A DNA stretch of 25,440 nt from the IMG/VR virus record IMGVR_UViG_3300032242_002579, positions 1 to 25,440 of that record; one strand, given 5' to 3'. Positions 1 through 18,459 of the stretch are shown piece after piece. This DNA is from a virus. Both the position numbers and the translations under genes were made by a program. Numbering within the stretch: position 1 is the stretch's first letter; each line of letters opens with the position of its first letter. The notes under the pieces are model-generated. The model ran no database searches. It was not told the origin of the DNA and saw nothing but the letters and a program-made list of their open reading frames with translations.

Positions 1-1
1 A

Positions 2-841
2 AATGCTCTTCAATTATCAGATCTTCCAGATAGAATAACATTATCTTTTGATACTAATGCTGCAAAAAAACTACATAGTTTTGGATATTTTAGTCCATCT
101 GAAAACAACATGTGGGTTTATGTAAAGAACAGAAATGCTGCGGATATTATTCGTACCATTGCACATGAGTTAATACATAGAAAACAAGAAGAAGAAGGTC
201 GAATAGATAATACTTCCGGAGAAACTGGATCAGAAATAGAAAATGAAGCTAATGCTTTAGCTGGGGTTTTGTTAAGAAATTATGGAAAAAAACACGTAGA
301 AATTTACGAAATCATGAAAAACAAAGAATTTTTAAAAAAATTAATCAATGAAGCAATTGAAGTCAACAACCAAGTTGCCCAAGAAGAGGGTTATAACGTT
401 AGAAACGTTATTAAAAAAATTGAGGAAGATGCACACCATGCATCCAAAGCTCAACAAATTGAAAGACTACAGCTCGAAATTGATTCTATAAATTCTAAAT
501 TAGCTGAAGAAGTTCTCAATGAAACTGATGAAGCTGAACGTAATATTAAGACGATGCGTATTAGTCGTAAAAGACTTCAAGATCATATTGGAAAGCTTAG
601 AGGATATGATCCAGCAGTTAGTAATGAACCTGTTGATATAAATACTCCTGAAAAATCAAAAAATGGTGGTGAATTAGAAGAAAGAAAGTTAACAGCACCT
701 GAAAAAAAGGAAAAGGAAAAAGTTGTTAAAGCAATTAAAAAAGATACTGGAGCTAATAAAAGTGGTGAGTTTACTTCCAAATCTGGAAAGACATATAATG
801 CATTTGCAGTTGCTACTGCAGCAGCAAAGAAAAAAAAATAG
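2..841 (+). CDS. HExxH zinc metallopeptidase-like protein, 5' end outside window
   Basis: The frame is open from base 2 to the stop at 841 with no stop codon before the ATG at 110, so this is the 3' part of a longer gene rather than a gene starting at 110. The visible protein has HELIH (bases 164-178), the zinc-binding and catalytic motif of gluzincin-type peptidases, followed about 25 residues later by an acidic stretch reading SEIENEANALAG. That spacing and the E-x-E-A pattern resemble ImmA/IrrE-type peptidases, where a downstream Glu completes the metal site. The rest is a charged, probably coiled-coil region and a Lys-rich tail ending in KKKK. A phage-coded peptidase could act in virion assembly or on host proteins; the sequence does not decide. 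The motif is clear, the exact family is inferred. Confidence 0.7.
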   Translation, partial: NALQLSDLPDRITLSFDTNAAKKLHSFGYFSPSENNMWVYVKNRNAADIIRTIAHELIHRKQEEEGRIDNTSGETGSEIENEANALAGVLLRNYGKKHVEIYEIMKNKEFLKKLINEAIEVNNQVAQEEGYNVRNVIKKIEEDAHHASKAQQIERLQLEIDSINSKLAEEVLNETDEAERNIKTMRISRKRLQDHIGKLRGYDPAVSNEPVDINTPEKSKNGGELEERKLTAPEKKEKEKVVKAIKKDTGANKSGEFTSKSGKTYNAFAVATAAAKKKK

Positions 842-1439: not shown

Positions 1440-2040
1440 TGAAATTTTAGGAGCTTTTGTTACTGGTATAATTGGACCAGTTGCCGTACAAGCCATAAAA
1501 TATTACCTTGATCACAGAAAATCTAAAAAAGCAGATTTAATAAAAGAAGCTTGTACAGTAAATAGAGATGTTGAAGATAAAATAGAAAAAATTCGTGAAG
1601 ATTTTGAAGCTGATAGGATTTGGATTAGTCAAATACATAACGGTGGCCATTTTTTACCAACGGGAAAATCTATACAAAAATTTAGTATGTTTTATGAAGT
1701 AGTAGATATAGAAATACCATCTATTAAATATAAATTTCAAAACATACCATTAAGTTTATTTACAAGATCAACAGAGCAGCTCATTAAAAATGATATGCTT
1801 ATTATTCCTTCATATCAGGATTCAAACTATGAGAAATATGGTTTATCTGATGTTTCAGTTATATCAGGATGTAAAAGTACATATTTATTTGCTTTGAAAG
1901 ATATTTATGGTAGATACTTTGGTACGTTTGGTCTTGAGTATACTAAAAAAGAAGTACTTTTAGAAGAAAAAGATATACAGGAAATATCAAGACTTGCATC
2001 TGTTATAGGTGGAGTTTTAATGATAAACTATCATGAATAA
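1426..2040 (+). CDS. Membrane-anchored GAF-like domain protein
   Basis: I chose the ATG at 1426 (MTLNNEILGAF) over an in-frame ATG at 1405 because it gives a cleaner membrane anchor and a shorter overlap with the upstream gene. The 204-residue product starts with one hydrophobic segment (about residues 6-26), then a short charged helix, then a mixed alpha/beta region with the stretch ISQIHNGGHFLPTGKSIQKF and a C-terminal strand-helix pattern that resembles a GAF-type sensory fold. No catalytic residues are evident. A small-molecule-sensing or scaffolding role at the host inner membrane is possible but unproven. The last 8 bases overlap the next start codon. Confidence 0.55.
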   Translation: MTLNNEILGAFVTGIIGPVAVQAIKYYLDHRKSKKADLIKEACTVNRDVEDKIEKIREDFEADRIWISQIHNGGHFLPTGKSIQKFSMFYEVVDIEIPSIKYKFQNIPLSLFTRSTEQLIKNDMLIIPSYQDSNYEKYGLSDVSVISGCKSTYLFALKDIYGRYFGTFGLEYTKKEVLLEEKDIQEISRLASVIGGVLMINYHE

Positions 2041-2557
2041 AAAAGAATTAACTGATATAGTTAGAAAAGCAGTAAAAGAAAAAATTCATTTATCTAACGT
2101 TAAAAACGATGATAATGTTCAAGAATTTACATATTTACGAGATACTTTAACTGATTTACTTACAGATCAATATCCTACTTTCATTAATGGAGTTGATTGG
2201 GTTGCACCAAAACCAACAACTTTTAGAGTAAATTTGCGTAACGGTCAATATTTCATGTTAATTTGGAATGTAGATGATTTTCAAGCTATTGTGGCTGGTA
2301 AAAAATATGATTTATCTTCTCTTCCACAACAAGAAAATGCAACAAAAGCTATTTCAAGACTTCTTTATACCAAAGTAAATGTTCAAAAAGAAAATGATTT
2401 GGCTACATTAGATTCTGGATTACCTGGAGCTGGGGCACCTGTACCTGGAAGTTTATCAGGAGGAGTTAGTCCAGAACCGGGTGGAGCTGTACCAGGGTCT
2501 CCGGAAACTCCACCAAGTGAAGAGCAACCAAGTGAAGAAGAAGTAGCAACAATATAG
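2033..2557 (+). CDS. Small protein with Pro/Gly-rich C-terminal tail
   Basis: A 174-residue protein of unknown function. It begins with a short amphipathic helix (MNKKELTDIVRKAVKEKI), continues with a compact globular region (about residues 30-115) containing several aromatic residues, and ends in a low-complexity tail rich in Pro, Gly, Ser and Glu (from about residue 128). The tail looks like a flexible or collagen-like linker. The start overlaps the preceding stop by 8 bases and the stop lies one base before the next start, so it is surely co-translated with its neighbours. A similar N-terminal helix occurs in the two following genes, hinting at a shared targeting role. Confidence 0.6.
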   Translation: MNKKELTDIVRKAVKEKIHLSNVKNDDNVQEFTYLRDTLTDLLTDQYPTFINGVDWVAPKPTTFRVNLRNGQYFMLIWNVDDFQAIVAGKKYDLSSLPQQENATKAISRLLYTKVNVQKENDLATLDSGLPGAGAPVPGSLSGGVSPEPGGAVPGSPETPPSEEQPSEEEVATI

Positions 2558-2558
2558 T

Positions 2559-3542
2559 ATGAAAAAATCATATTTAATTCAGAAATTAAGAGAAGCCATC
2601 AGAATGCAAATTTTGAAGGATAAACCTTTGATGGAAGCTGAGAAAATTGCTACCGGAAGAGAAGAATCTGAAGAAGAAGATCAGGAATTGGATCAAACAG
2701 TAGTTGGAAAGCCAGAAGAAAAAGAAAAGCAGATAGGTCCTGATACTGAGGTTGGAAATATTCAAAATGTTGCACCTCCTGCTGCAGGAACAGTAACAAC
2801 AGTAAATCCACCGTCAACTAAAATAGAACCAACATCCCCACCGGCCCCAGTATCGGCTGATGCTACGGTTGATAAATCAAAAGAAACGGATACCAAGGTA
2901 TCTCCAGGAGATGACATAACTAAACCAGATGGTGTTGATACTACAGGAAAAGTAGAGCCTAATAAACCACCCGCTGGACCAGAAACCGACATAAAAGGTG
3001 TAGAAGCTACAAGTGATATTGGAAAATTAGCTACACGGTTGTACGATAAAGGATATCGATTTGTAGTTAGTAGTGAGTCAGAAATTAAAGATTTATTGCA
3101 TAATGCTAGTAGTGTAAATATTAAAGGAGATAATGTAAAAAGAATAGGTAGTAAATTTATTACTATTATTTTTAGAAAAAGATCTGATAATAAATGGAGA
3201 GTACTTAGTGGTCAGATTGGTAGCATAAACAAAAGTTTTACTAATGATAAAAATAAACTTATGGGTACCCCTGTAAGAGATATTGCTGGAGAAAAAGTTA
3301 CAGATGCAAACGGAAAACCTGTTATAAAATATCCAGGTGAATGGGGAGCAAAATATGGTTTAAAAAGTTCTAATTTGTCCGATTATAATTTAATTCCAAT
3401 TTATACTAGCAATGTAAAACAAGATCCAAATTTAAAAAATGCAGCAGGAGAAAGCAAACCTAAAGCATCTAAATGGAGATCAGTACCTTTAGATAGAGTT
3501 AAAGGTGTTATAGTTGGTAAAAAGGTTTATTGGAAAAAATAA
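2559..3542 (+). CDS. Pro-rich linker protein with unknown C-terminal domain
   Basis: A 327-residue protein with three parts. An N-terminal helix (MKKSYLIQKLREAIRMQIL) resembles that of the upstream gene. A long, low-complexity Pro/Thr/Glu/Val-rich linker spans about residues 28-150. A globular C-terminal domain (about 152-327) is rich in Lys, Ser and beta-prone residues. No known family is recognised. The architecture of helix, flexible spacer and terminal domain is typical of virion-decorating or internal head proteins, but that is inference. It follows the preceding gene with a one-base gap. Confidence 0.6.
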   Translation: MKKSYLIQKLREAIRMQILKDKPLMEAEKIATGREESEEEDQELDQTVVGKPEEKEKQIGPDTEVGNIQNVAPPAAGTVTTVNPPSTKIEPTSPPAPVSADATVDKSKETDTKVSPGDDITKPDGVDTTGKVEPNKPPAGPETDIKGVEATSDIGKLATRLYDKGYRFVVSSESEIKDLLHNASSVNIKGDNVKRIGSKFITIIFRKRSDNKWRVLSGQIGSINKSFTNDKNKLMGTPVRDIAGEKVTDANGKPVIKYPGEWGAKYGLKSSNLSDYNLIPIYTSNVKQDPNLKNAAGESKPKASKWRSVPLDRVKGVIVGKKVYWKK

Positions 3543-3565
3543 AATAATTTAACTATATTTACAAA

Positions 3566-3856
3566 ATGAAACTAGAAGAATTTCAAGATCTTGTTAAAGC
3601 AATGATGAAAGAGCAAACAGCAAGTGTTGCCACGGGTGATTTTGCCATTCCATCTAAGTCATATCTTAAGCAAAACAAAAAAGCTATGGTAAAGGAAGCT
3701 ATCAGAGCTATGGTTAAGAAGCAAATGATGAACGAAGATGATTCAAATGAGCTTACATTTGATATTTCTGATCTTTCTCCTCAAGATCAAATGGCTAAAA
3801 AAAAAGAAATTATTCAACAAAATCCAGGTAAAACAGTTATTTTTAAAACAGAATAA
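3566..3856 (+). CDS. Small helical protein of unknown function
   Basis: A 96-residue, mostly helical, Lys/Met-rich protein. The N-terminus MKLEEFQDLVKAMMKEQ and an internal stretch MVKEAIRAMVKKQMMNED look like two versions of one amphipathic helix, also similar to the starts of the two genes upstream. The final 25 residues are beta-prone. A 23-base gap precedes it and carries an ATATTTAC element that ends three bases before the ATG. No function can be assigned. Confidence 0.55.
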   Translation: MKLEEFQDLVKAMMKEQTASVATGDFAIPSKSYLKQNKKAMVKEAIRAMVKKQMMNEDDSNELTFDISDLSPQDQMAKKKEIIQQNPGKTVIFKTE

Positions 3857-3857
3857 T

Positions 3858-4223
3858 ATGAATCAACAATTAATTAAACCCATCCTTATTATTATTGCAT
3901 CATTCATACTAATTGTTTCAATAGTAAATCATTTTATTAATCCTGTAGATAATTCTAATTATAAGAAGGATTCACTACATAGTATAGATAGCCTTAAAAA
4001 AATAATAGATTCTTTAAATAAAAGGCAAACTCAATTAGATAGTAATATAGTTTTATTAAAAACAAAAAGCTCAAAAATTGATAATTTAGTTAATTCTAAT
4101 AGGGAAAAAATAACTACCATTAAAGAAAAAACCAGTGAAAAAATTACTACTATTATTCTTGGTTATAATATTGACAGTGTCAAAAGGTACTTGTCAATTA
4201 ATTATAAGGAACCCATCAGATAG
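3858..4223 (+). CDS. Inner-membrane coiled-coil protein, candidate i-spanin
   Basis: The ATG at 3858 lies one base after the preceding stop and gives a 121-residue product; an in-frame upstream start at 3738 would only read the shadow of the neighbouring gene. The protein has an N-terminal transmembrane segment (about residues 6-27, very rich in Ile and Leu) and then a long polar region with heptad-like Leu/Ile spacing (about 38-100), predicted to be a periplasmic coiled coil. This is the topology of inner-membrane spanins of the Rz type, which help disrupt the outer membrane at lysis. Its last 89 bases overlap the next gene in another frame, as many spanin pairs do. The topology is visible; the lysis role is inferred. 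Confidence 0.5.
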   Translation: MNQQLIKPILIIIASFILIVSIVNHFINPVDNSNYKKDSLHSIDSLKKIIDSLNKRQTQLDSNIVLLKTKSSKIDNLVNSNREKITTIKEKTSEKITTIILGYNIDSVKRYLSINYKEPIR

Positions 4224-4566
4224 CATAAGAATTCCTGTATCACTTAGGACAATGAAGTTGATAATAGGTGATCTTGAATTGGGTAAAAGTTATAAAAAAC
4301 AATTGGATATCTATGTTCAAAATATTGGATTATTAGAAAGTAGAGTAAATATAAATAATAATATAATTAGTTCATATCAACTAAAAGAAGTAAATTACAA
4401 ATCAATTATTGAAAATAAAGATAAAATAATAATTGAAAGTAATAAAATAATGGTAGGTTTATCTCAAGATAAGACAAATTTAAAATTAAAATTGTTTAGA
4501 TCAAGATTAACTACTGTGGTTCTCGTTCCATTATCAATTGGTATAACATACTTCTTGTTAAAATAG
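4135..4566 (+). CDS. Secreted, C-terminally anchored protein, candidate o- or u-spanin
   Basis: A 143-residue protein starting at GTG 4135, inside and in a different frame (+1) from the preceding gene. The N-terminus is a good signal sequence (MKKLLLLFLVIILTVSKGTC) that ends at a single Cys, an imperfect lipobox. The middle is polar and probably coiled coil, and the C-terminus has a second hydrophobic segment (about residues 124-142). Signal sequence with Cys, coiled coil and C-terminal membrane anchor is the topology of unimolecular spanins such as T1 gp11; with its neighbour it could instead be the outer partner of a two-gene pair. The imperfect lipobox leaves simple signal-peptidase I cleavage possible. 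Confidence 0.5.
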   Translation: MKKLLLLFLVIILTVSKGTCQLIIRNPSDSIRIPVSLRTMKLIIGDLELGKSYKKQLDIYVQNIGLLESRVNINNNIISSYQLKEVNYKSIIENKDKIIIESNKIMVGLSQDKTNLKLKLFRSRLTTVVLVPLSIGITYFLLK

Positions 4567-4570
4567 GTTT

Positions 4571-4610
4571 TGTAACATAATAGATTCTAATATCTATTAA
4601 TTAAGTTACA
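4571..4610 (+). promoter_or_regulatory. Nested inverted repeat upstream of the terminase gene
   Basis: The 45-base gap before the terminase gene holds an inner hairpin of 8 bp (4578-4585 with 4592-4599, loop of 6) nested in an outer pair TGTAAC/GTTACA (4571-4576 with 4605-4610). The structure ends one base before the ATG at 4612. There is no T-tract, so it is not a standard terminator; it may shape translation initiation or act as an operator. An ATATCTAT sequence inside it (4590-4597) differs by one base from the recurrent box described elsewhere. Confidence 0.4.
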
Positions 4611-4611
4611 T

Positions 4612-7596
4612 ATGGAAGAAAATCAACAAGTTAGCAATCAAGCTGCGGCAAAGATTGCAATGAGACAAGAATACATAAAATGTGCGGTAGATCCTGCCCA
4701 CTTCATGCGAAAATACTGCATGATCCAGCATCCAATCAAAGGTACAATATCATTTAATCTTTACGAATTTCAAGGAAAAGTACTTCATTTATTGCAGAAC
4801 AATAACTATTCACTTATTCTTAAGTCACGACAACTAGGAATATCTACTTTAAGTGCTGGTTATGCTTTATGGTTAATGGTATTTAACAATGATAAGAACG
4901 TTCTTGTGCTTGCAACTAAGCAAGAAACAGCCAAGAATATGGTTACTAAAGTTAAATTTATGTATGAAAATCTTCCAGCGTGGTTAAGAGGTAACAAAAA
5001 ACCACAGGAAGCTAATAAATTAACACTTAAATTAGCCAATGGATCTCAAATTAAAGCAGTATCTGCTGCCGGTGACTCTGGTCGTTCTGAAGCAGTATCA
5101 TTATTGATTATAGATGAGGCTGCATTTATTGATGGAGTAGAAGAAATATGGGCATCATCTCAACAAACGTTATCAACTGGTGGTGGGGCTATCGTATTAT
5201 CATGTGTTACAAAAGATACATATGTTTATACTGATAATGGCATAAAAAAAATCGAAAATTTCTATAAAAACCCAGAATCGGAAGAAGATTATCGTATTGA
5301 TCAATATAATATACTAGGAAAGGATAAATTAAGAAAAGGAGAATTATTTCATAATAATGGAAAGACAAAAACAAAAATAATAAATTCAGTATATTCTTAT
5401 TTAGAAGGTTCTTTTAACCACAAAGTTTACGGATATTCATCTAATAACAATACATATGATTGGATGAGGCTTGATGAGTTATCAGAAGGTGATTATGTTG
5501 CGGTTCAATATGGTATGAATATATGGGGAAATAATAATGATGTAAGTTTGTTTCAACCATCTATTTCAAATAAAATAAAAATTAAATATAATCCATCTTT
5601 AATTGATGCTAATATAGCCTATCTTATAGGTCTTTATATATCAGAAGGATCATCATACATTAATAAAAATGAATATGGTAATGTTGTAGGTGGAAATATA
5701 ACAATAACTTGTGGTGATGATATTAGTAAATCTATAACTAAATGTGGCCTTAATTACTCTAGTCATGACAAATTACATTATACCGTATCATCAAAAAACT
5801 TAATAGAGTTCTATCAATATCTTGGTTTTGATCTATCAAAGAAAGCAAAAGAAAAAATTATTCCAGAAAGAGTATTAGAAATGTCTAAGGATAATATTAT
5901 ACAAATGCTTAGAGGTATTTTTGATGGTGATGGGAGTGTTATGAAAAAGAAAAATAATCTAAGAGTTTCTATAGGATTATCTAGTAAAGAACTTATATTG
6001 CAGTTAAGAGTTATTCTTTTAAATTTAGGAATATTACCAACATATCAAGAAACTATAACAAAAATTACAAAAAAAGTAAAAGTTGTCTCTAATTCATATA
6101 GATTAGATATTTCAGGTAAACAAGCAGAAAAATTTTGTGATATTATTGGATTTAATCTAGATAGAAAAATATCAATTTATGAAAACCATAATAAAAAAGA
6201 CGATATAAGAACTGGTGTATTAGATATAATACCAGGATATTCAGATATTTTTAGCAAAATAAAAGATAATTCTAAGTTGGGTTTACATTCACTTAATAAT
6301 AAAACAGGAATTTCTTTGAGTAGAATAGGTTCTACAAAATCTTTGCTTTCTTTAAGTAGAACGAATGCATTAAAAATAAAAGAATCACTAGAAGAATATT
6401 TTGATAAAGACATATTAGACTTTTATTCAAAAAATATAAATGAGAATATAATTTGGTCAAAGGTATCAAGTATTAAAGAATCAGAAAATTATACTTATGA
6501 TTTTTCATTACCAGAAACGGATAATGAATGGTGTCATTCTGTTATTTATAATGGAATTGTTGGCCATCAAACACCCAATGGTATTGGAAATTGGTTTCAT
6601 CAGATGTGGGAAAAGGCAGAATTATCTGAAAATAACTTTTTACCTATTAAACTTAGATGGGATGTTCACCCAGATAGGGATATATCATGGAGAAGACAGC
6701 AGGATGATGATCTTGGGGTTAAACTAGCTAGTCAAGAATGTGATGCTGAATTTTTAGCATCAGGTGATACTGCTTTTGAATCAGATGATTTGGCTTATTA
6801 TGAAAAAAATGTAATTCAACCTATTAATAAAAGAGGACAAGAAGGAAATCTATGGATATTTGAGGAAGCTGATTATAAAAAAGACTATATGGTTGTTGCC
6901 GACGTTGCTAGAGGAGATGGTAAAGACTTTTCGGCATGTCATGTTATTGAAATAGAATCAATGAGACAAGTAGCTGAGTATAAATCCCATATTCAAACTC
7001 CTGATTATGCTAACTTTCTTTATGCTCTTGGAACAGAATATAATGATGCTATGCTTGTAGTAGAAAATTCAAGTATCGGATGGGATGTAATTACAAGATT
7101 ATTAGAGAGAGGATATAAAAACTTCTACTATTCACCCAAGACCGATATACTAACACAAGAAGAATGGGTTTCAAGGTTTAACAATCCTAATAACTTTACT
7201 CCTGGATTCGTCAATTCACTTAAAACTAGACCTTTAATTATAGAAAAGTTTAGGGAATATGTATCAAAGAGGCAAGTAGTAATAAATTCTCCTAGATTAG
7301 TATCAGAAATGAGAACTTTTATTTGGAAGAATGGTAGAGCTGAAGCACAATCAGGATATAATGATGATCTAGTAATGTCTATGGCAATAGGTTTATACCT
7401 AAGAGATACTGCTGTTAGGTTTAGAAAGGCAAATTTAGACTTAACTAAAAATGCTTTAGATAATTTTAGTGTTAATAGGGGATATACTGATCAAAATAGT
7501 CAACAAGCTGATGGTGGATTCGGTATATATTCAGGTACTTCAATGAATGATAATTCTCTTTTACAACAATATAAAGATAACTCTTGGTTATTTTGA
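4612..7596 (+). CDS. Terminase large subunit (T4 gp17-like) interrupted by an intein
   Basis: The DNA-packaging motor ATPase and nuclease. The 994-codon frame contains a 456-residue intein (residues 198-653); the spliced product would be 538 residues, a little shorter than T4 gp17 (610). Visible motifs are the terminase-type Walker A SRQLGIST (residues 72-79), Walker B LLIIDEA with D168 and E169, and the coupling motif, split by the intein and restored on splicing as VLS-TPNG. The C-terminal RNase H-like nuclease has likely metal ligands D764 (VVADVARGDGKDF), E818 (LVVENSS) and D918/D919 (YNDDLVMSMA). The protein docks on the portal coded just downstream and cuts concatemeric DNA. Unlike T4, no sheath or tube gene lies between terminase and portal. 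Confidence 0.96.
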   Translation: MEENQQVSNQAAAKIAMRQEYIKCAVDPAHFMRKYCMIQHPIKGTISFNLYEFQGKVLHLLQNNNYSLILKSRQLGISTLSAGYALWLMVFNNDKNVLVLATKQETAKNMVTKVKFMYENLPAWLRGNKKPQEANKLTLKLANGSQIKAVSAAGDSGRSEAVSLLIIDEAAFIDGVEEIWASSQQTLSTGGGAIVLSCVTKDTYVYTDNGIKKIENFYKNPESEEDYRIDQYNILGKDKLRKGELFHNNGKTKTKIINSVYSYLEGSFNHKVYGYSSNNNTYDWMRLDELSEGDYVAVQYGMNIWGNNNDVSLFQPSISNKIKIKYNPSLIDANIAYLIGLYISEGSSYINKNEYGNVVGGNITITCGDDISKSITKCGLNYSSHDKLHYTVSSKNLIEFYQYLGFDLSKKAKEKIIPERVLEMSKDNIIQMLRGIFDGDGSVMKKKNNLRVSIGLSSKELILQLRVILLNLGILPTYQETITKITKKVKVVSNSYRLDISGKQAEKFCDIIGFNLDRKISIYENHNKKDDIRTGVLDIIPGYSDIFSKIKDNSKLGLHSLNNKTGISLSRIGSTKSLLSLSRTNALKIKESLEEYFDKDILDFYSKNINENIIWSKVSSIKESENYTYDFSLPETDNEWCHSVIYNGIVGHQTPNGIGNWFHQMWEKAELSENNFLPIKLRWDVHPDRDISWRRQQDDDLGVKLASQECDAEFLASGDTAFESDDLAYYEKNVIQPINKRGQEGNLWIFEEADYKKDYMVVADVARGDGKDFSACHVIEIESMRQVAEYKSHIQTPDYANFLYALGTEYNDAMLVVENSSIGWDVITRLLERGYKNFYYSPKTDILTQEEWVSRFNNPNNFTPGFVNSLKTRPLIIEKFREYVSKRQVVINSPRLVSEMRTFIWKNGRAEAQSGYNDDLVMSMAIGLYLRDTAVRFRKANLDLTKNALDNFSVNRGYTDQNSQQADGGFGIYSGTSMNDNSLLQQYKDNSWLF
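5203..6570 (+). mobile_element. Intein with LAGLIDADG homing endonuclease in the terminase gene
   Basis: In-frame insertion coding for 456 residues. It begins at Cys198 (CVTKDTYVYTDNGIKKIENF, block A) and ends NGIVGHQ at Gln653, followed by Thr654 as the +1 nucleophile. Block F is seen as TYDFSLP, and a block-B-like stretch as GSFNHKVYG. Two dodecapeptide motifs of a LAGLIDADG nuclease are present: YLIGLYISEGS (residues 337-347, acidic E345) and LRGIFDGDGSV (433-443, acidic D440 in the equivalent position). All splicing and cleavage elements look intact. The C-terminal Gln in place of Asn is less common but known in active inteins. By eye the insert is richer in A and T than the flanking exteins, which fits horizontal acquisition. 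Confidence 0.93.
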
Positions 7597-7597
7597 T

Positions 7598-7605
7598 ATA
7601 TTTAT
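7598..7605 (+). promoter_or_regulatory. ATATTTAT box upstream of the portal gene
   Basis: An exact copy of the recurrent ATATTTAT element in the 33-base gap between terminase and portal, ending 24 bases before the portal ATG. No Shine-Dalgarno sequence is seen between box and start. Interpretation as a late promoter element rests on recurrence, not on experiment. Confidence 0.45.
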
Positions 7606-7629
7606 AAACAAGTTAGTTAATAATTTAAA

Positions 7630-10600
7630 ATGGCAATAGATACCAGTCTTTACGGAAGACTTCAAAGACTTTTTGGAACAAGTGTTATAATCAGGAATGT
7701 TGGCGGAAACCAATTAAAAGCAATTGATTTAGACAATGTTCAATCATACGGTAATAAACAATCTAACGGATTAATGGATAAGTATGGCAGAATACATTCT
7801 GTTCATTACGCATCCTTATATGATTACCCATCAAATTATTCTACATTAAAGCCACAGTTGTATCGTGATTACGAAACAATGGATACTGATGCCATCATTA
7901 GCTCAGCTCTCGACGTACTGTCAGATGAGTGTTTAGGTGGCAATACTATTATTCCGTTATTAAACGGCAAGAAAAAAACAATAGAAGAACTATATAAAGA
8001 AAGTGCAACTAATTTTTGGTTATATGGTCTAAATAAGTCCACATTAATGTTTGAACCTGTACAAGCTGAGAAAGTGGCTTATAATGGAAAAAAACAAGTA
8101 TACGCCATTACTTTTGATGATGGAACTATTATTGAAGCAACTTCTAATCATATTTGGATAACCTCTGATGGAAATGAATTGACAACTTCTGAACTAACGA
8201 AAGGTTCATCTATATTAGCTCTTCCAACTAGATTATCAGATAACCAAACAATGAAAGGGTATGAACAAATTTGGGATGGAAAATCATTTAAATATGTTCA
8301 TAGAATTATTGGAAATTGCATCCAACACCTTGTTGAGCAAAAAAATAATTTACCAGATGATAAAACCAAGGTTATACATCATTCTTCTTTTGATAAATTA
8401 AATAATGATCCAGATTATTTAATTTGGATGGGTTGGTCTGATCATAATCGAGTACATTCTAATTTTAACAAAAATTTGTGGAAGGGAATAAATTCAGATC
8501 AAGAAAAAAAGAATATTTTTATAAAAAAAGTATTAGATGGTCAAAAAAAATATTGGGATAGTGTAGATAGGGTTGCTCTTAGTTTAAAATTGTCAGAAAA
8601 AAGAAAAGAAGTTTTTTCAAAAATGACAGATGATGAAAAAAAACTAAAATATGGAAAGCCAGGAATTTTAAATAATATGTTTGGCAATGGACATAAGTTA
8701 GTTGGTGATAAAAATGGAAGATATGATAAAATTTCAAATAGAATTGAAAATATTGATATAGAAAAAATTATTCTTGAAATAGCTGCAAACCCTCATCCAA
8801 AAATTTTAGAAGATATAAGATTAAAAAATGGATTCTGTAAGTTTGAATGGAGAAAAGTTAAATCAAAACTATATGCTAGATATAAAGAGACCACTCACAA
8901 ACCTTTAATAAATAAAATTTTAGTAGAAAACAGTACTGATATAGTAATATCATTTAGAACTTTTTGTTTAAATAACTATAAAGAAGGAAATAGATTTATT
9001 GTTAAGCAATATTGTACAGAAAAAAATATTTCTATTAGACATTTAAGGCGAGTAATATTAAATTTGGGTTATTCTTCATTAGAAAATTTTGCAACATCTA
9101 AAAACCATAGAATTGTAAAAATAGAAAAGAAAGGAATAGTAGATGTGTATGATATTGTAAATGCAGGAGAAAATCACATTTATGCAATAGAAGCGAAAGA
9201 TGGTTCAAAGATTTATACTCATAATTGTACACTTAAAAATGAGAACCGGGAAATACTTCAAATAAGAAGTTCTGATGATAAAATACAAGCTATACTTTAT
9301 AATTTATTTTACGATATTCTAAATCTTGAGTATACATTATGGCCATGGATTCGAAATATGTGTAAATATGGTGATCACTATGTTTACTTACGTATTAAAG
9401 AGGGATATGGTATCTATAATGTTCTTCCTATGCCTCCTCATGATATCAATAGACACGAAGGAGAGAATCCAGAAAAGCCTGATGAAGTATTTTTTACTTT
9501 AGGACCAGATGGTCAAGGTTCAGGAGTTCAATATAATAAGGATTTAAAGAATAGATACGAGAATTTTGAGATTGCTCACTTTAGATTACTTAGTGATACT
9601 CGTTATTTACCTTATGGTAGGGCATATATTGAACCTGCTAGGAAGATATATAAGCAATTAAGTCTTATGGAAGAGGCTATGATGATACATCGTATCATGA
9701 GAGCTCCTGAAAAGCGTGTATTTTATATAAATATTGGAGCTATTCCTCCTAATGAGGTTGAACAGTTTATGAAAAAGACTGTAGATAAGATGAAGAAGAC
9801 ACCATTTGTGGATCCACAGACAGGTGAATACAATCTTAAGTACAACATGATGAATGCTTTGGAGGATTTCTATATACCAGTTCGTGGTGGAGACGCTACT
9901 ACTAGGATAGATACTGCTAAAGGATTAGAATATAATGCTATAGAAGACGTTAATTACTTAAGGGACAAGCTGTTAGCATCATTAAAGATACCTAAAGCGT
10001 TCTTCGGTTATGAGAAAGATTTATCTGGAAAATCAACACTTGCTGCGGAAGACATTCGATTTGGTCGCACGATTCAAAGATTACAAAGTATTGTTGTTAG
10101 CGAGCTTACTCGTATAGCATTAATACATTTATATGTTCAAGGATATACGGATGAGAGGCTTACAAACTTTGAATTAAGTCTTACTACCCCATCAATTATA
10201 TATGAGCAAGAGAAGATAGCTCTTTGGAAAGAGAAAGTATCCCTTGCACAAGATCTTGTTGCTAGTAATCTAGTATCATCTGATTGGATATATGACAGGA
10301 TATTTGAATTCAGTGAGGATCAAGTATCAGAAATGCGGGATTTAATTGCTGAAGATAAGAAAAGAATATTTAGACTTACTCAGATTGAAAATGAGGGTAA
10401 CGATCCATCCGAATCAGGTGAATCATACGGAACTCCTCATGATCTAGCTTCATTATATGGTCGTGATCGTTTAAAAGATGGAGGATTGCCTGATGGATTT
10501 GATGAAACAAAAGTAGTAGGTAGACCTAAAGAAAAAAGTTCTATATATGGAACCCAGGATAGTGCATTTGGAAGAGATGCTATTGGAAAAAAAGAAATGA

Positions 10601-10755
10601 ATGCTCCTATGGATAGTAATCCACTTAGACATAATTTTAGAGGAGGATCACCACTTAGTCTTAAAGAAAAAAAAGAAATTAATATATTTCTAGGAAAAGG
10701 TGGTAAAGAAAACGAAAAAGATTTATTGTCTGAGTCGAATATTAAGGATTTATAG
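7630..10755 (+). CDS. Portal vertex protein (T4 gp20-like) interrupted by an intein
   Basis: The portal forms the DNA-entry vertex, nucleates prohead assembly and is the docking site for terminase. The 1041-codon frame carries a 432-residue intein (residues 101-532); the spliced protein would be 609 residues, against 524 for T4 gp20. The C-terminal extein contains stretches recognisable from gp20, notably IMRAPEKRVFYINIGAIPP, then the DTAKGLEYNAIEDVNYLRDK region and LKIPKAFFGYE. The splice junction joins LDVLSDE to CTLKNENREIL, a natural portal sequence. The last 100 or so residues are a polar Gly/Lys/Asp-rich tail, probably disordered and longer than in T4. Its start follows an A/T-rich leader and an ATATTTAT box. 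Confidence 0.95.
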   Translation: MAIDTSLYGRLQRLFGTSVIIRNVGGNQLKAIDLDNVQSYGNKQSNGLMDKYGRIHSVHYASLYDYPSNYSTLKPQLYRDYETMDTDAIISSALDVLSDECLGGNTIIPLLNGKKKTIEELYKESATNFWLYGLNKSTLMFEPVQAEKVAYNGKKQVYAITFDDGTIIEATSNHIWITSDGNELTTSELTKGSSILALPTRLSDNQTMKGYEQIWDGKSFKYVHRIIGNCIQHLVEQKNNLPDDKTKVIHHSSFDKLNNDPDYLIWMGWSDHNRVHSNFNKNLWKGINSDQEKKNIFIKKVLDGQKKYWDSVDRVALSLKLSEKRKEVFSKMTDDEKKLKYGKPGILNNMFGNGHKLVGDKNGRYDKISNRIENIDIEKIILEIAANPHPKILEDIRLKNGFCKFEWRKVKSKLYARYKETTHKPLINKILVENSTDIVISFRTFCLNNYKEGNRFIVKQYCTEKNISIRHLRRVILNLGYSSLENFATSKNHRIVKIEKKGIVDVYDIVNAGENHIYAIEAKDGSKIYTHNCTLKNENREILQIRSSDDKIQAILYNLFYDILNLEYTLWPWIRNMCKYGDHYVYLRIKEGYGIYNVLPMPPHDINRHEGENPEKPDEVFFTLGPDGQGSGVQYNKDLKNRYENFEIAHFRLLSDTRYLPYGRAYIEPARKIYKQLSLMEEAMMIHRIMRAPEKRVFYINIGAIPPNEVEQFMKKTVDKMKKTPFVDPQTGEYNLKYNMMNALEDFYIPVRGGDATTRIDTAKGLEYNAIEDVNYLRDKLLASLKIPKAFFGYEKDLSGKSTLAAEDIRFGRTIQRLQSIVVSELTRIALIHLYVQGYTDERLTNFELSLTTPSIIYEQEKIALWKEKVSLAQDLVASNLVSSDWIYDRIFEFSEDQVSEMRDLIAEDKKRIFRLTQIENEGNDPSESGESYGTPHDLASLYGRDRLKDGGLPDGFDETKVVGRPKEKSSIYGTQDSAFGRDAIGKKEMNAPMDSNPLRHNFRGGSPLSLKEKKEINIFLGKGGKENEKDLLSESNIKDL
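7930..9225 (+). mobile_element. Intein with HNH homing endonuclease in the portal gene
   Basis: In-frame insertion coding for 432 residues, from Cys101 (CLGGNTIIPLLNGKKKTIEE, block A) to THN at Asn532, followed by Cys533 as +1 nucleophile. Block B is clear as GTIIEATSNHIWIT, and the C-terminal part has VDVYDIV and KIYTHN, giving a canonical His-Asn/Cys junction. The inserted nuclease is of HNH type: IHHSSFDKLNND holds H250, H251, N258 and N259, and a second half reads DHNRVHS with H272 and H276. Downstream, FGNGHKLVGDKNGRYDK resembles a NUMOD3-like DNA-binding segment. No LAGLIDADG motif is seen, so the element is of separate origin from the terminase intein. All key residues look intact. Confidence 0.92.
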
Positions 10756-11942: not shown

Positions 11943-13316
11943 ATGCAAAATATACAAAAATTATATCAAGATCTACATGAGGGTAAAATCTCTAGAAATC
12001 AATTCTTATTCCAATTAAGAAAAGATAGTAGAATCAATTCTTTCTTTACTAGTGCTAACTCATATGATGAGACAGTTCGTATTCTTAAAAATCGTGGATT
12101 ATTATTTGAGAAACATTTAACTCCTGCTGAAACTAAAAAGAAAGAAAGCATTATTACATCAATGAAAGATACATTCAAGGGACCTGCTCCTGCTATGTAT
12201 GCTATTGCCACTAAGAAAGCTGAAAAATTAGCTGAAGATAATTTAGATGAAGACTATGAAGTATCTATGGCAGAAGATTCATTAGATTCTATTATTCAAG
12301 CGGCCATGAAATTAAAATCTGAGCTAGGTGGACAAGAAGTTAATCTACCGGCTTGGGTACAAGATCATATTACTAATTCTGAAAATTATATTAACCAAGC
12401 AGCTAAGGGATATCATGAAGCTGATGCGGAAATGGAAAATCATGCAGGTGAAGAAAATGAATCAATGTATGAAGCTCGTTTTAAAAAGGGTGAAGATGTT
12501 GGAGAAAAAGGTATGAATTTCAAAAAGATCCAAAAAGATGCTGCTAAACGTTATGGTTCGGAGGAAGCTGGTAAAAGAGTTGCAGGATCTATCTTAAAAA
12601 AAGTACTTAAAAAAGAAGAAATTGGAAGTAACGATCCAGAGACTAGTTACGAAGGACTTAATAATATAAATGAAGCTAAAAATAATCCAAAAGTTGAAAA
12701 GCTTGTTAATGTCATTAATGATATGATAGCAAAAGCTATGGATGAAGATGGAGATCCTATTGGTGTAATAGAGCCGGGTACTACTTATGAAGAGCCATAT
12801 ACATACTTTCCTATTGAGTATAAGAATGGAACTCTTAGAATTACTTCAAAAAGTGTTTATAATAATAAACCTGAAGTTGATGTAATTAGTAGCGAAAATA
12901 TGATGTATGACGGAGTTCCTACATTACAATTAATTGCTAGAATGTATAAGAAGGCTATCAAGAAATCAGGTAATAATCAAGAAATGCCACCAGCACCATC
13001 TCAAGAAGAAACTGATGCTAATCAGGTATATGAGGGTAATTTAAATGAATCTAAAGAACCTACTAAGGGAGCAGATCAAGTAAATCCATATGAGTTAGAG
13101 AAAGGTACATATTATGAACTAGATTGCCAAAAGGATGGTGCAAAAGACACTAAAAAGGCAAAGGCTAAAGCAATAAAGAACCTTAATAAGAACCCTAAGT
13201 ATTACAGCGATCTCTTCTCTAAGAATTATAATGACAACCCAAATACATCTGATCAAATGCAGATAGTAAAAGAGTCATTAAAGAATTTAATTAATGATAT
13301 CTTATCTGAGAAGTAA
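11943..13316 (+). CDS. Prohead core-like multi-segment protein
   Basis: A 457-residue protein made of short segments: an N-terminal helical region (about 1-60, with LYQDLHEGKISRNQF), a segment LPAWVQDHITNSENYINQAA (135-154) of a type I associate with T4-like head-region proteins, a basic helix-rich stretch with MNFKKIQKDAAKRYGSEEAG (191-210), a mixed domain at about 245-345, and a C-terminal part with NPYELEKGTYYELD and KNPKYYSDLF. Acidic linkers join them. No enzyme motif is seen. Position directly before the protease suggests an internal head or core protein, but these segments also occur in proteins of unknown role. The stop overlaps the protease start by one base. Confidence 0.55.
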   Translation: MQNIQKLYQDLHEGKISRNQFLFQLRKDSRINSFFTSANSYDETVRILKNRGLLFEKHLTPAETKKKESIITSMKDTFKGPAPAMYAIATKKAEKLAEDNLDEDYEVSMAEDSLDSIIQAAMKLKSELGGQEVNLPAWVQDHITNSENYINQAAKGYHEADAEMENHAGEENESMYEARFKKGEDVGEKGMNFKKIQKDAAKRYGSEEAGKRVAGSILKKVLKKEEIGSNDPETSYEGLNNINEAKNNPKVEKLVNVINDMIAKAMDEDGDPIGVIEPGTTYEEPYTYFPIEYKNGTLRITSKSVYNNKPEVDVISSENMMYDGVPTLQLIARMYKKAIKKSGNNQEMPPAPSQEETDANQVYEGNLNESKEPTKGADQVNPYELEKGTYYELDCQKDGAKDTKKAKAKAIKNLNKNPKYYSDLFSKNYNDNPNTSDQMQIVKESLKNLINDILSEK

Positions 13317-13921
13317 TGGCTAATTTAATTGTAGAGCATACTAATGATGGTTCATCTTTATTGATGGAAAGCAAAATCATGCCTAATGGTGTTGTTATGA
13401 TATCAGGAAAGATTCATGAGGCTGAAAGGATTAACGGAAACAAAAGAAACTATCCATATGATACTCTTAGAAGAGAAATGGATAATTATATAAATGAATC
13501 CGTTAGGGCTAACAGAGCAATGGGAGAACTAGATCATCCAGAGAGTGCTATTATAAATTTAAACAACGTATCTCATCTTATCAAAAATATTTGGTGGAAA
13601 GATAAAGAAGTTTGGGCAGATATTGAATTACTTGATACTCCTGCAGGAAGAATTGCAATGGCTTTAGTAAAAAGAAATATACCAGTAGGAATTTCTGCCA
13701 GAGGAATGGGATCAGTACAACAAATAGGAGAAGCTGTAGAAGTTCAGGATGATTATTCATTACTTTGCTTTGATTTAGTATCCGTTCCTTCAACTCCGGC
13801 AGCCTATCTATCCCTTAAAGAAGGAATGGGGCATGATGCTTTGTTAAATCCATATGGAAAAATTAATGCCGTTATTACTGATATACTCTGTGGAAAGGGT
13901 TTTTGCTCTTGTCAAGTATAA
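13316..13921 (+). CDS. Prohead core protease (T4 gp21-like)
   Basis: A 201-residue serine protease that cleaves scaffold, core and capsid proteins during head maturation. The catalytic His lies in GELDHPES (H74) and the nucleophile in GISARGMGS (S127), the arrangement of T4 gp21-type peptidases; D153 in CFDLVSVPS is a possible third residue. T4 gp21 has a similar length (212). The C-terminus ends with three close Cys (CGKGFCSC), which I cannot explain. It is the last gene before a strong terminator, and the next two genes code for its main substrates. The enzyme family is well supported by both motifs and by context. Confidence 0.9.
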   Translation: MANLIVEHTNDGSSLLMESKIMPNGVVMISGKIHEAERINGNKRNYPYDTLRREMDNYINESVRANRAMGELDHPESAIINLNNVSHLIKNIWWKDKEVWADIELLDTPAGRIAMALVKRNIPVGISARGMGSVQQIGEAVEVQDDYSLLCFDLVSVPSTPAAYLSLKEGMGHDALLNPYGKINAVITDILCGKGFCSCQV

Positions 13922-15206: not shown

Positions 15207-16841
15207 ATGAATAATGTACAACAACTGTTAGAATCTTCTAACACTTACACAACTCAACTACAAGAAGCGGCTCGCTTGTCTTCTAAGTGGGAGAAATTTG
15301 GCCTTTTAGAAGGCTTGTCTGGATACGAGAAAGGATCTGTATCAATGATGTTAGAAAACCAAGCAAAACGCTTATTAGCTGAGGCAAGTTCTACCAACTC
15401 TGGTGGTGCTTCTTTCTCTTCTGGTGCTGGTGAGCAATGGCCTGGTATCGCATTACCTTTAGTTCGTCGTGTGTTCGCTGAAATTTCTGCTAAAGAATTT
15501 TTATCGGTACAACCAATGAACTTACCTGCTGGTTTAGTATTCTATTTAGATTTTAAATATGGTAATACTAAAGGTTTATTTACTTCTGGTAAATCAGTTT
15601 ACGGTTCGCCTGCTGATGAGCATCCTAACTTGACTTCAGTTCCTCCAACAGGTGGTGCTTATGGATTGCGTTTTGGATATTCATTAAACAACGCTTCTGC
15701 TTCTGTGTCTACTGGTGCTGCTACTTCTGCTTCATTTGCTGATGTAAACTTTGATGATGCTATTACTGGTTCAGTTGCTAATGGTCAAATTAAAAAGATC
15801 GTTGTAACTTCTGCTTCTTTGGCTGGTATTTCTTTAGATACTAATGCTACTCGTGGATTCTTACCAACTTCTGGATCTGCCGGTGCTTCTGGAACAATTG
15901 ATGCTACTACTGTATTACCTAGATTTAGTTTTTATAACGCATCAAATAATACATTTACTTTCTTTGTAACTTCATCTGCTCATATTACTGCTGCTTCTGC
16001 TGCTGTTACTTTGTATTATACAAAGCAAACTAAAGATAATGCTCGTGGTGATTTTGAAGATAACCCTACTGGTTCAATCAGTATCCCTGAATTCAACATC
16101 TCTATGAAGTCTGAATTCATCGTGGCTGAGACTCGTAAGTTGAAAGCACAATGGACTCCAGAATTTGCTCAAGATTTCAATGCATATCATGCATTAGATG
16201 CTGAAGCAGAATTGACTTCATTATTGTCTCAACACGTAGCAATGGAAATCGATATGGAATTGATCAATATGTTGATCGAGAACGCATTGGTTAAGGAATA
16301 CTGGTCTGCTAATAACAACCAATTCATCAACGCTGATGCTTCTGCATTCACTAACAAAGATGTTACTACTGGTGGATACTATAACTCACAAGGTCAGTGG
16401 TTCCAAACTTTAGGAACTAAGTTACAAAAAGCATCTAACAAGATTGCTCAGTTAACTTTAAAAGGTGGTGCTAACTGGATCTTAGTTTCTCCAACTATTG
16501 CAACTGTTTTGGAATCAATTCCAGGATTTGCAACTGATGGTGATGGTGGAAAGGATGAGTTCAATTTCGGAGTACAGAAGATTGGTTCATTATCAAACCG
16601 TTATAAGGTGTACAAAAACCCATATATGACTGAAAACGTGATACTTATGGGCTATAAAGGTGGACAATTTTTGGAGACAGGGGCCGTTTATGCACCCTAC
16701 ATTCCGTTAATGATGACTCCATTATTATACGATCCAAATACATTCACTCCACGTAAAGGGTTAATGACTCGTTACGGTAAGAAGATGTTGAGACCTGAAT
16801 TTTTTGGGAAAATCATCGTATCTGGTTTGAACAGTTTGTAG
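15207..16841 (+). CDS. Major capsid protein (T4 gp23-like)
   Basis: A 544-residue HK97-fold capsid protein. Stretches comparable with T4 gp23 include the VQPMNLPAGLVFYLDFKYG region, AETRKLKAQWTPEFAQDF, the ALDAEAEL segment and TGAVYAPYIPLMMTP near the C-terminus. An N-terminal propeptide is expected: RLLAEASS (LAE at residues 57-59) fits the (L/I)xE protease rule and lies close to the T4 cleavage after residue 65, which would leave about 485 residues. Residues 145-275 are a Ser/Ala/Thr-rich region with low similarity to T4, perhaps an insertion domain. Codons are strongly biased to GCT, TCT, ACT and GGT, in line with very high expression. The start lies 15 bases after the scaffold stop without a Shine-Dalgarno sequence. 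Confidence 0.95.
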   Translation: MNNVQQLLESSNTYTTQLQEAARLSSKWEKFGLLEGLSGYEKGSVSMMLENQAKRLLAEASSTNSGGASFSSGAGEQWPGIALPLVRRVFAEISAKEFLSVQPMNLPAGLVFYLDFKYGNTKGLFTSGKSVYGSPADEHPNLTSVPPTGGAYGLRFGYSLNNASASVSTGAATSASFADVNFDDAITGSVANGQIKKIVVTSASLAGISLDTNATRGFLPTSGSAGASGTIDATTVLPRFSFYNASNNTFTFFVTSSAHITAASAAVTLYYTKQTKDNARGDFEDNPTGSISIPEFNISMKSEFIVAETRKLKAQWTPEFAQDFNAYHALDAEAELTSLLSQHVAMEIDMELINMLIENALVKEYWSANNNQFINADASAFTNKDVTTGGYYNSQGQWFQTLGTKLQKASNKIAQLTLKGGANWILVSPTIATVLESIPGFATDGDGGKDEFNFGVQKIGSLSNRYKVYKNPYMTENVILMGYKGGQFLETGAVYAPYIPLMMTPLLYDPNTFTPRKGLMTRYGKKMLRPEFFGKIIVSGLNSL

Positions 16842-16974: not shown

Positions 16975-18459
16975 ATGAATATAAGACCATCAAATATTAA
17001 TCCCAGTGAAAAAGAAAGACTTCTTTGTTTAATTTGCAATACAGAGTTTTTAGATGGGCATAAAAGAAATGCTCACCTTAAAGAAGTACATAGTATTACT
17101 TATGAAGAATATGTTGTAAAACAATATTTTAATAATAATAATCCAATCTGCATGTGTGGATGTAATATTAAGTTAAAGTTTAAACAATTTCTTAATAAAC
17201 CATTTTTTTCAGATTTTACTAAGAATCACTTTCCTAGAAAGGAACATACCCAAGAAGCAAAAGATAAAATTAAACAGGGAACCATTGCCACCATAAGGAA
17301 AAAATATGGTGTTGATAATATCATGGAACTTAAAGAGTATGTTGATAAAATAGCAGAGGTTAAGAAAAAAAGATATGGTGATGCTAATTATAACAATATA
17401 GAAAAGGGTATGAAGACAAATCTTGATAGATATGGATCTAATAATTACAATACTTCAGATTCGGCTAAAGATAAATTCTTAGAAAATAAAGATAAATGTA
17501 GGCTTTGCAAACAACCTGTTAAAACTGCTGGAAATTACTATTGTAGTAGAAACTGTTTGTTGCAGGATAAAAAAGATTTAAAGTTTAGCTCAGTTGCTGA
17601 ACGTGAAATAGCAGATTTTTTAAGATCTAAAGGCTTAAATGTTATTCAGGGAAGTAGAACTATGGGTATAGAAGTTGATATATTACTACCAGATCTTAAC
17701 ATTGCAATAGAATATAATGGAATGTTGTATCATTCAGAATATTATGGCAAGAAACCAAAGAGTTATCATTTAAATAAAACTAAAATTTGTGAAAGTAATG
17801 GGATACAGCTAATTCATATATTTGAAGAAGAATACAAAAAGAAAAAGAAATTACTTTTAAATAAAATATTATATAAATGTTCTGTAGGCGATACAATAAA
17901 GGTTCATGCTAGAAAATGCATCATTAGGGAAGTTAGTTCATTAGAAAGAAATATATTTTTAGAGGAGAATCATATTCAAGGAAAAGATAAAGCTACTATA
18001 TCATTGGGTGCTTATTATCAGGATGAACTGATTGGTGTTTATAGTTTATCTAAACCAAGGGTTGCACTTGGAAGAAAAACTTCAAAAGAAAATGAGTATG
18101 AATTAAGCAGATTTGCAACTAAATCTGGAATTTCTTGCAATGGACTTCTTTCTAAGATGATTAAGTATTCTCAAAAGAACTACATAATAGATAGTCTTTA
18201 TACTTATGCTGATAGAAGATATACATACTTACACGATAATGCTTACTTAAGAGCTGGTTTTATTCAGGAATCTATTACCAAGCCAAATTATTGGTATTTA
18301 AAAAACTATGACACTAGAATCCACAGATTTAATTTTACTAAATCAAAGATTATAAAAATGGGAGGTGATGCGAATAAAACTGAAATTGAAAATATGATTG
18401 AATGGGGTTATGATAGAATTTGGGATTCTGGTAGCATAAAATATATCTACAACAAGTAA
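16975..18459 (+). CDS. Free-standing homing endonuclease, Vsr-like (EDxHD type)
   Basis: A 494-residue protein typical of mobile genes in large phages. The N-terminus carries a C2H2-like zinc finger (C18, C21, H34, H39), a Cys cluster CMCGC near residue 60, and a zinc-ribbon-like group CRLC...YYCSRNC (about 175-194). The nuclease core at about 205-288 has AEREIADFLRSKG, GIEVDILLPDLNIAIEYNG (D235, E246), LYHSE (H253) and YHLNKTKIC (H265), then LIHIFEEEY, the pattern of EDxHD/Vsr-superfamily enzymes. The C-terminal region (about 310-460) with NHIQGKDKA and YELSRFATKSG is a companion domain of this class. It sits alone between the capsid terminator and phoH; genes on both sides are intact. Confidence 0.88.
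   Translation: MNIRPSNINPSEKERLLCLICNTEFLDGHKRNAHLKEVHSITYEEYVVKQYFNNNNPICMCGCNIKLKFKQFLNKPFFSDFTKNHFPRKEHTQEAKDKIKQGTIATIRKKYGVDNIMELKEYVDKIAEVKKKRYGDANYNNIEKGMKTNLDRYGSNNYNTSDSAKDKFLENKDKCRLCKQPVKTAGNYYCSRNCLLQDKKDLKFSSVAEREIADFLRSKGLNVIQGSRTMGIEVDILLPDLNIAIEYNGMLYHSEYYGKKPKSYHLNKTKICESNGIQLIHIFEEEYKKKKKLLLNKILYKCSVGDTIKVHARKCIIREVSSLERNIFLEENHIQGKDKATISLGAYYQDELIGVYSLSKPRVALGRKTSKENEYELSRFATKSGISCNGLLSKMIKYSQKNYIIDSLYTYADRRYTYLHDNAYLRAGFIQESITKPNYWYLKNYDTRIHRFNFTKSKIIKMGGDANKTEIENMIEWGYDRIWDSGSIKYIYNK

What the first reader, a model, noticed from the sequence alone, without database searches (positions are those of the whole stretch)
7930..9225. Second intein, with an HNH nuclease, in the adjacent portal gene
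A complete intein with canonical Cys start and His-Asn/Cys end sits in the portal gene, and its HNH nuclease is unrelated to the LAGLIDADG nuclease of the terminase intein 1.4 kb upstream. Portal inteins seem less familiar to me than terminase inteins. Two neighbouring proteins that bind each other both depend on protein splicing.
Basis: partly seen in the sequence, partly recalled or inferred. Interest (0 to 1): 0.65.

Follow-up and report, generated by a model that had tools for sequence, protein, structure and literature searches.

The report
Mobile HNH intein in phage portal
The portal gene of this uncultured T4-like phage carries a self-removing protein insert with its own DNA-cutting enzyme, a known kind of genetic parasite, and sister phages show the same spot empty, fully occupied, or holding a remnant that has lost the enzyme.

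Summary
Window 7930-9225 is a 432-residue class 1 intein in a T4-type portal (gp20) gene. It has Cys1, block B TxNH, and His431-Asn432 followed by Cys+1, and an HNH nuclease sits between the two halves of the Hint splicing domain. The AlphaFold model matches solved inteins at Z about 20. A near-identical sibling contig (98-99% portal identity) lacks both this intein and the neighbouring terminase intein, with no scar. About 244 related portal loci are empty at the same point, so the segment is not a native portal domain.

At the same site I found 28 occupied records (20 with HNH, 8 without). One nuclease deletion is very recent: its flanks are at least 99.7% identical to a full copy. One transfer is recent: inteins 99.3% identical inside portals only about 79% identical. 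The intein and host-gene trees conflict. This is a homing element seen at every stage of its cycle.

Portal inteins (mycobacteriophages) and HNH inteins were already known, so this is a new insertion-site family of a known kind. The pairing with terminase inteins recurs but is not significant once phylogeny is controlled. Splicing and cleavage are inferred, not tested.

The parts
7630..7929 (+). portal (gp20) N-extein, 100 aa, ends ...ALDVLSDE
   Evidence: aligned without gap to intein-free portals
7930..9225 (+). intein at portal site a, 432 aa, class 1, CLGG...THN
7930..8220 (+). N-terminal part of the Hint splicing domain (residues 1-97): block A Cys1, block B T71-x-N73-H74
   Evidence: this half is kept in all mini-inteins
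8377..8457 (+). HNH nuclease core motif (residues 150-176: HH...KLNN.P...H...H) inside the linker of about 290 aa
   Evidence: the linker is absent in L088, L089, L091, L093, L094, L096 and mostly absent in L120, L121
9091..9225 (+). C-terminal part of the Hint splicing domain (residues 388-432): blocks F and G, His431-Asn432
9226..10755 (+). portal C-extein, begins with the +1 nucleophile Cys (CTLKNE...), with stop codon
5203..6570 (+). neighbouring LAGLIDADG intein in the terminase large subunit gene (ends HQ|T); context, not the finding itself

Best explanation
It is a mobile class 1 intein with an HNH homing nuclease, inserted at one fixed point ('site a') of a T4-type portal protein gene. 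Shown: a continuous frame, complete splicing residues, Hint fold, HNH motif, exact empty sites in close and distant relatives, site-specific relatives with and without the nuclease, recent horizontal transfer, and tree conflict. Inferred: after translation Cys1 attacks the Glu-1/Cys1 bond, Cys+1 takes over the N-extein, Asn432 cyclises and the portal is ligated to its 609-residue form; meanwhile the HNH domain cuts or nicks intein-free portal genes during co-infection, and repair copies the intein into the break. The portal itself is the ordinary dodecamer subunit. The insertion falls at about T4 gp20 residue 98/99 in the wing domain, so an unspliced portal is unlikely to assemble.
For: Domain and residue evidence. 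Fold: AlphaFold model (mean pLDDT 73; about 83-94 in most of the splicing halves) matches Ssp DnaB mini-intein 6frg at E 3e-7 and intein structures at Z about 20 over 135 residues spanning model 1..432. Empty twin L007 with both sites vacant and no scar. Thirteen independent-pattern hits in IMG/VR, all real portals with an intein at the same codon, then more by profile. Recent transfer: L102 and L104 inteins differ at 9 of 1296 nt while the exteins are about 79% identical, with background divergence resuming about 35 nt upstream and about 50 nt downstream; each version is seen in at least two metagenomes. Tree conflict: exteins join L112 with L095 and L108 (97/96), the intein data reject this at p-AU 6e-5. 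Nuclease loss: L089 lacks HNH but its exteins are 99.7-99.9% identical at nt level to full L097. HNH dN/dS 0.09-0.13 between close full copies, although minis show it is dispensable for the portal. About ten gains or losses on the portal tree. Inteins group by insertion site, not by phage.
Against: No splicing or cleavage experiment exists. The HNH call in the window's own copy is modest in score and its model region is low confidence (pLDDT about 45-60). Between the more distant copies (window to L087, L095) HNH dN/dS rises to 0.33-0.44, with dS near saturation, so constraint on the window's own nuclease is not proven. The window has no close intein-bearing relative (best 55%).
Confidence: 0.93

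Rival explanations
1. The segment is a native, retained domain of this portal lineage that merely resembles an intein.
For: It is in frame and the gene is otherwise intact.
Against: 244 homologous portal loci, including one 98-99% identical, have nothing there. All splicing residues are intact and the Hint fold matches solved inteins. The nuclease part is lost independently in at least two and probably three lineages.
Confidence: 0.02
2. It is a genuine intein that no longer moves: the HNH is decaying and the copy is inherited vertically, splicing only for the host gene's sake.
For: HNH-less relatives persist at the same site, and HNH dN/dS between distant copies is up to 0.44.
Against: The window's HNH keeps every invariant motif residue in an open frame. 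Its closest extein relative is empty, which fits recent gain or loss rather than long vertical inheritance. A sister family shows very recent transfer.
Confidence: 0.2
3. The portal and terminase inteins act as a coupled regulator: both packaging proteins become active only when both have spliced, timing DNA packaging.
For: Portal-a intein and terminase intein co-occur in 12 of 23 scorable occupied loci against 5 of 201 empty ones (Fisher p 3e-10). gp17 and gp20 bind each other (T4 structure paper PMC4493910). Conditional splicing was proposed for a cyanophage terminase (PMC7156551).
Against: With phylogeny controlled the association is not significant (about 3 concordant pairs to 0, p 0.25). 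The paired terminase inteins differ in site and type between lineages, some split and some in frame, and siblings work without either (L007). The portal site lies in the wing, not at the gp17-binding clip tip. A simpler cause is that some lineages meet more homing elements.
Confidence: 0.04

Closest known systems
Portal (PORT) inteins of cluster C1 mycobacteriophages (Kelley et al. 2016, PMC5050341)
   Same: Inteins in a phage portal gene; six are listed.
   Different: That portal is filed under POG1190 in mycobacteriophages. The one here is a T4-type gp20 portal (PF07230). I did not compare the sequences directly, and I read no statement there that the portal inteins carry HNH.
HNH-type inteins (first recognised by Dalgaard et al. 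1997, cited in PMC5050341)
   Same: Class 1 Hint splicing domain with an HNH nuclease in the linker.
   Different: New host gene and insertion site; the family has its own site-a clade (100/99).
Ssp DnaB and Npu DnaB mini-inteins (PDB 1mi8, 6frg, 4o1r)
   Same: Closest solved splicing-domain structures by sequence profile and by fold.
   Different: These are mini-inteins of a cellular helicase with no HNH domain.
Terminase inteins of T4-like phages (Salmonella phage Maynard, PMC3868846; Campylobacter phage IBB_35, PMC3322345)
   Same: Inteins in packaging genes of T4-like phages.
   Different: Terminase only; no portal intein was mentioned in the passages I read.
HNH portal intein in uncultured huge phage LR756508 (third of three inteins in its portal)
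   Same: HNH intein in a gp20-type portal, about 28% identical over the splicing and HNH regions.
   Different: Inserted in the tunnel-loop region (LEGK|S), not at site a; that record carries no annotation.

Membership tests
Class 1 intein | N-terminal Cys or Ser nucleophile | tested here: met
   Cys1, invariant in 13 relatives
Class 1 intein | Block B TxxH | tested here: met
   T71-S72-N73-H74; T, N and H invariant
Class 1 intein | Penultimate His, terminal Asn, +1 Cys/Ser/Thr | tested here: met
   His431-Asn432|Cys; occupied copies have +1 Cys or Ser only
Class 1 intein | Hint fold | tested here: met
   Z about 20 to RecA, DnaB and DnaE inteins, 135 residues aligned
Class 1 intein | Precise in-frame insertion, absent from homologues | tested here: met
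   Gap of 0 codons in 244 empty loci
Class 1 intein | Autocatalytic protein splicing | not testable with these tools
   Needs expression of the precursor
HNH homing endonuclease intein | HNH motif in the linker between splicing blocks | tested here: met
   phrog_21964, HNH_3 in 5 of 7 relatives, invariant motif residues; window's own score modest
HNH homing endonuclease intein | Site-specific cleavage and homing | not testable with these tools
   Indirect only: recent transfer L102/L104 with short flanking tracts, tree conflict
T4-type portal (gp20) | Portal_T4 domain and neighbours gp17, gp21 protease, gp23 | tested here: met
   PF07230 2e-64, Peptidase_S77, Gp23, terminase in order
Split intein | N and C halves in separate reading frames | tested here: not met
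   Single ORF of 1041 aa; split forms occur in some relatives' terminases instead

The most novel reading that the evidence does not exclude
Portal and terminase splicing are functionally linked in this phage group, so that the two partners of the packaging motor mature together after translation, and paired inteins are kept for that reason rather than as unlinked parasites.
Probability: 0.04. Interest if true: 0.8.

Novelty: new member of a known kind. Interest (0 to 1): 0.38.

Why it matters
As a single intein it is ordinary. Its value is the natural series around it: one portal site seen empty, occupied with nuclease, and occupied without nuclease, with a near-identical sibling vacant at both the portal and the terminase site. 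That makes two open questions testable in a phage setting: how quickly the nuclease is lost once a site is occupied, and whether two neighbouring inteins hinder each other's homing, as reported for haloarchaeal MCM inteins (PMC10643990). About 13% of empty portals carry Ala at +1 (32 of 244), which by known chemistry should block splicing, so invasion-resistant alleles can be predicted.

Tried and rejected
Single-sequence search with the window's intein in IMG/VR found nothing, because exact peptide patterns are too strict; a junction pattern and a profile then found relatives. Co-conversion at the window's own site against L007: 5 differences within 100 nt either side (about 2.5%) against about 6.5% over the portal gene; too few to claim. 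The cellular genome scan gave only one weak hit in a Dependentiae MAG at 24%, not followed. AlphaFold of the intein-free portal was poor (pLDDT 41) and not used; the site was mapped on T4 gp20 by profile alignment only. A preference of occupied sites for +1 Cys/Ser over Ala/Thr was considered, but there are too few independent lineages to test it. L278 was first counted as site a, then found to be another site 12 residues upstream.

Full report
What is there. The window is a 25,440-base virus record of IMG/VR with no host genome. It carries the T4-type head module in order: terminase gp17 (4612-7596), portal gp20 (7630-10755), prohead protease gp21 (13316-13921) and major capsid protein gp23 (15207-16841). 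The nearest cultured relatives by portal sequence are Flavobacterium phage immuto (60%) and Microcystis phage Mel-JY01 (54%), so a Bacteroidota host is plausible but not shown.

The intein. Cys1, block B T71-x-N73-H74, His431-Asn432 and +1 Cys are all present and invariant in 13 relatives. Pfam Intein_splicing matches above its cut-off. The linker of about 290 residues holds an HNH motif: phrog_21964 matches at 2.4e-05, Pfam HNH_3 matches 5 of 7 relatives, and the motif residues are invariant. The AlphaFold model (pLDDT 73 overall, high in most of the splicing halves and low in the HNH core) matches Ssp DnaB mini-intein by Foldseek (E 3e-7). VIA-align gives Z about 20 to RecA and DnaB inteins over 135 residues spanning both ends of the model.

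Not a native domain. In 80 portal homologues from IMG/VR and two phage isolates the two flanks join with no extra codon. Locus L007 (IMGVR_UViG_3300010885_075255) is the key case: its portal is 98-99% identical to the window's, its terminase 93-97%, and both intein sites are empty. Over three portal scans and two further scans, 274 loci (a few are repeats of one contig) could be read at the site: 244 empty and 30 with an insert. After removing a duplicate record and one insert at a different site (L278), 28 records including the window carry an intein at site a: 20 with HNH and 8 without. Two more records are cut off by contig ends (L116, L124). The occupied records were sought deliberately, so this is not a frequency; in the unselected portal scans only about 1% were occupied.

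A homing cycle in snapshots. (1) Empty: L007 and most others. (2) Full: the window, L087, L095, L102, L104, L097, L090, L112 and others. (3) Nuclease lost: L089, L091, L094 and L096 (141 aa), L088 and L093 (148 aa), L120 and L121 (178 aa). These lie in three lineages on the portal tree; strongly supported branches of the intein tree force at least two changes. L089 and the full L097 have exteins 99.7-99.9% identical at nucleotide level, so this loss is very recent. Metagenome 3300016466 holds both a mini copy (L096) and a cut-off full copy (L116).

Movement. L102 and L104 carry inteins differing at 9 of 1296 bases, while the portal around them is about 79% identical. Divergence returns to background within about 35 nt upstream and about 50 nt downstream. 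The L102 version also occurs in L103 and the L104 version in L105, from other metagenomes, so a chimeric contig is unlikely. On matched taxa, the extein tree joins L112 with L095 and L108 (97/96), and the intein data reject that grouping (p-AU 6e-5); the reverse test on the extein data was not significant (p-AU 0.11). Inteins at site a form one clade and those at the tunnel-loop site another (100/99 and 100/100), which is how homing alleles behave. Parsimony needs about ten changes of state on 148 portals.

Constraint on the nuclease. Between close full copies the HNH linker has dN/dS 0.09-0.13 (L097, L098, L099; L090/L111). Because minis in the same lineage keep an intact portal frame, the nuclease is not needed for the portal, so this constraint is best explained by selection for homing (inference). 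Between distant pairs, including the window, the ratio is 0.24-0.44 with dS near saturation, so the state of the window's own nuclease is not settled.

Where the site lies. Profile alignment to T4 gp20 (99.8% probability) puts the insertion at about residues 98/99, inside the wing domain (70-254). gp17 contacts the clip tip at residues 291-296 (PMC4493910). The site is therefore not at the motor interface, but an unspliced insertion in the wing should prevent assembly (inference).

The terminase neighbour. The second intein (5203-6570, LAGLIDADG, ends His-Gln before Thr) is a separate element. Portal and terminase inteins co-occur in 12 of 23 scorable occupied loci against 5 of 201 empty ones, but lineages are few: independent pairs give about 3 to 0, p 0.25. 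Neighbouring inteins in haloarchaea hinder each other's homing (PMC10643990), so pairs are thought to arise by separate invasions. The window, L007 and relatives with one or other intein would be a phage test of that.

Comparison with what is known. Portal inteins are reported in cluster C1 mycobacteriophages, HNH inteins have been known since 1997 (cited there), and terminase inteins are common. The library searched is open-access only, and I found no report of an intein in a T4-type portal. New here, to the extent searched: the site-a family in gp20, its mini forms, and portals with two or three inteins (L088, L108, L109, L112; LR756508). I file it as a new member of a known kind. Splicing and cleavage remain to be tested.

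Noticed in passing
L097:5352-8145, L096, L098, L099, L088, L104, L105 (terminase genes): Terminase genes of several portal-intein relatives look split by an intein whose N half ends at a stop codon and whose C half restarts later. In L097 a 261-codon open frame lies between the halves, in L098 and L099 only about 0.4 kb: a fractured terminase with a probable split intein.
   Followed up: partly
L108 and L109 (portal ORF, 1757 aa): Three HNH inteins in one portal gene. The middle one begins with Pro and has Cys in block F (VYCMTVV), which looks like a class 3 intein.
   Followed up: partly
L004 (LR756508, 484-kb uncultured phage), 3668-7828: The portal holds three inteins at three further sites, and a nearby gene (1805-3586) holds another; the record is unannotated.
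   Followed up: partly
L132-L139, L141, L088, L093, L108, L109: A second portal insertion site in the tunnel-loop region (GYE..|C...HN|SGKATLAAED) is occupied in 13 contigs, some apparently without HNH.
   Followed up: partly
L278 (1914-5186): Portal HNH intein 12 residues upstream of site a (DPIIA|C...SN|SALDI), with an in-frame intein carrying a LAGLIDADG-like linker in its terminase (linker read by eye, no domain search).
   Followed up: no
window 16975-18459: Free-standing homing endonuclease gene (phrog_3339, 6e-91) directly behind gp23 and before PhoH. T4 has segD in the same place behind gene 23.
   Followed up: no
window 5203-6570: The terminase intein ends in Gln with +1 Thr, an atypical C-terminus; none of the relatives read here has an intein at that terminase position.
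   Followed up: no
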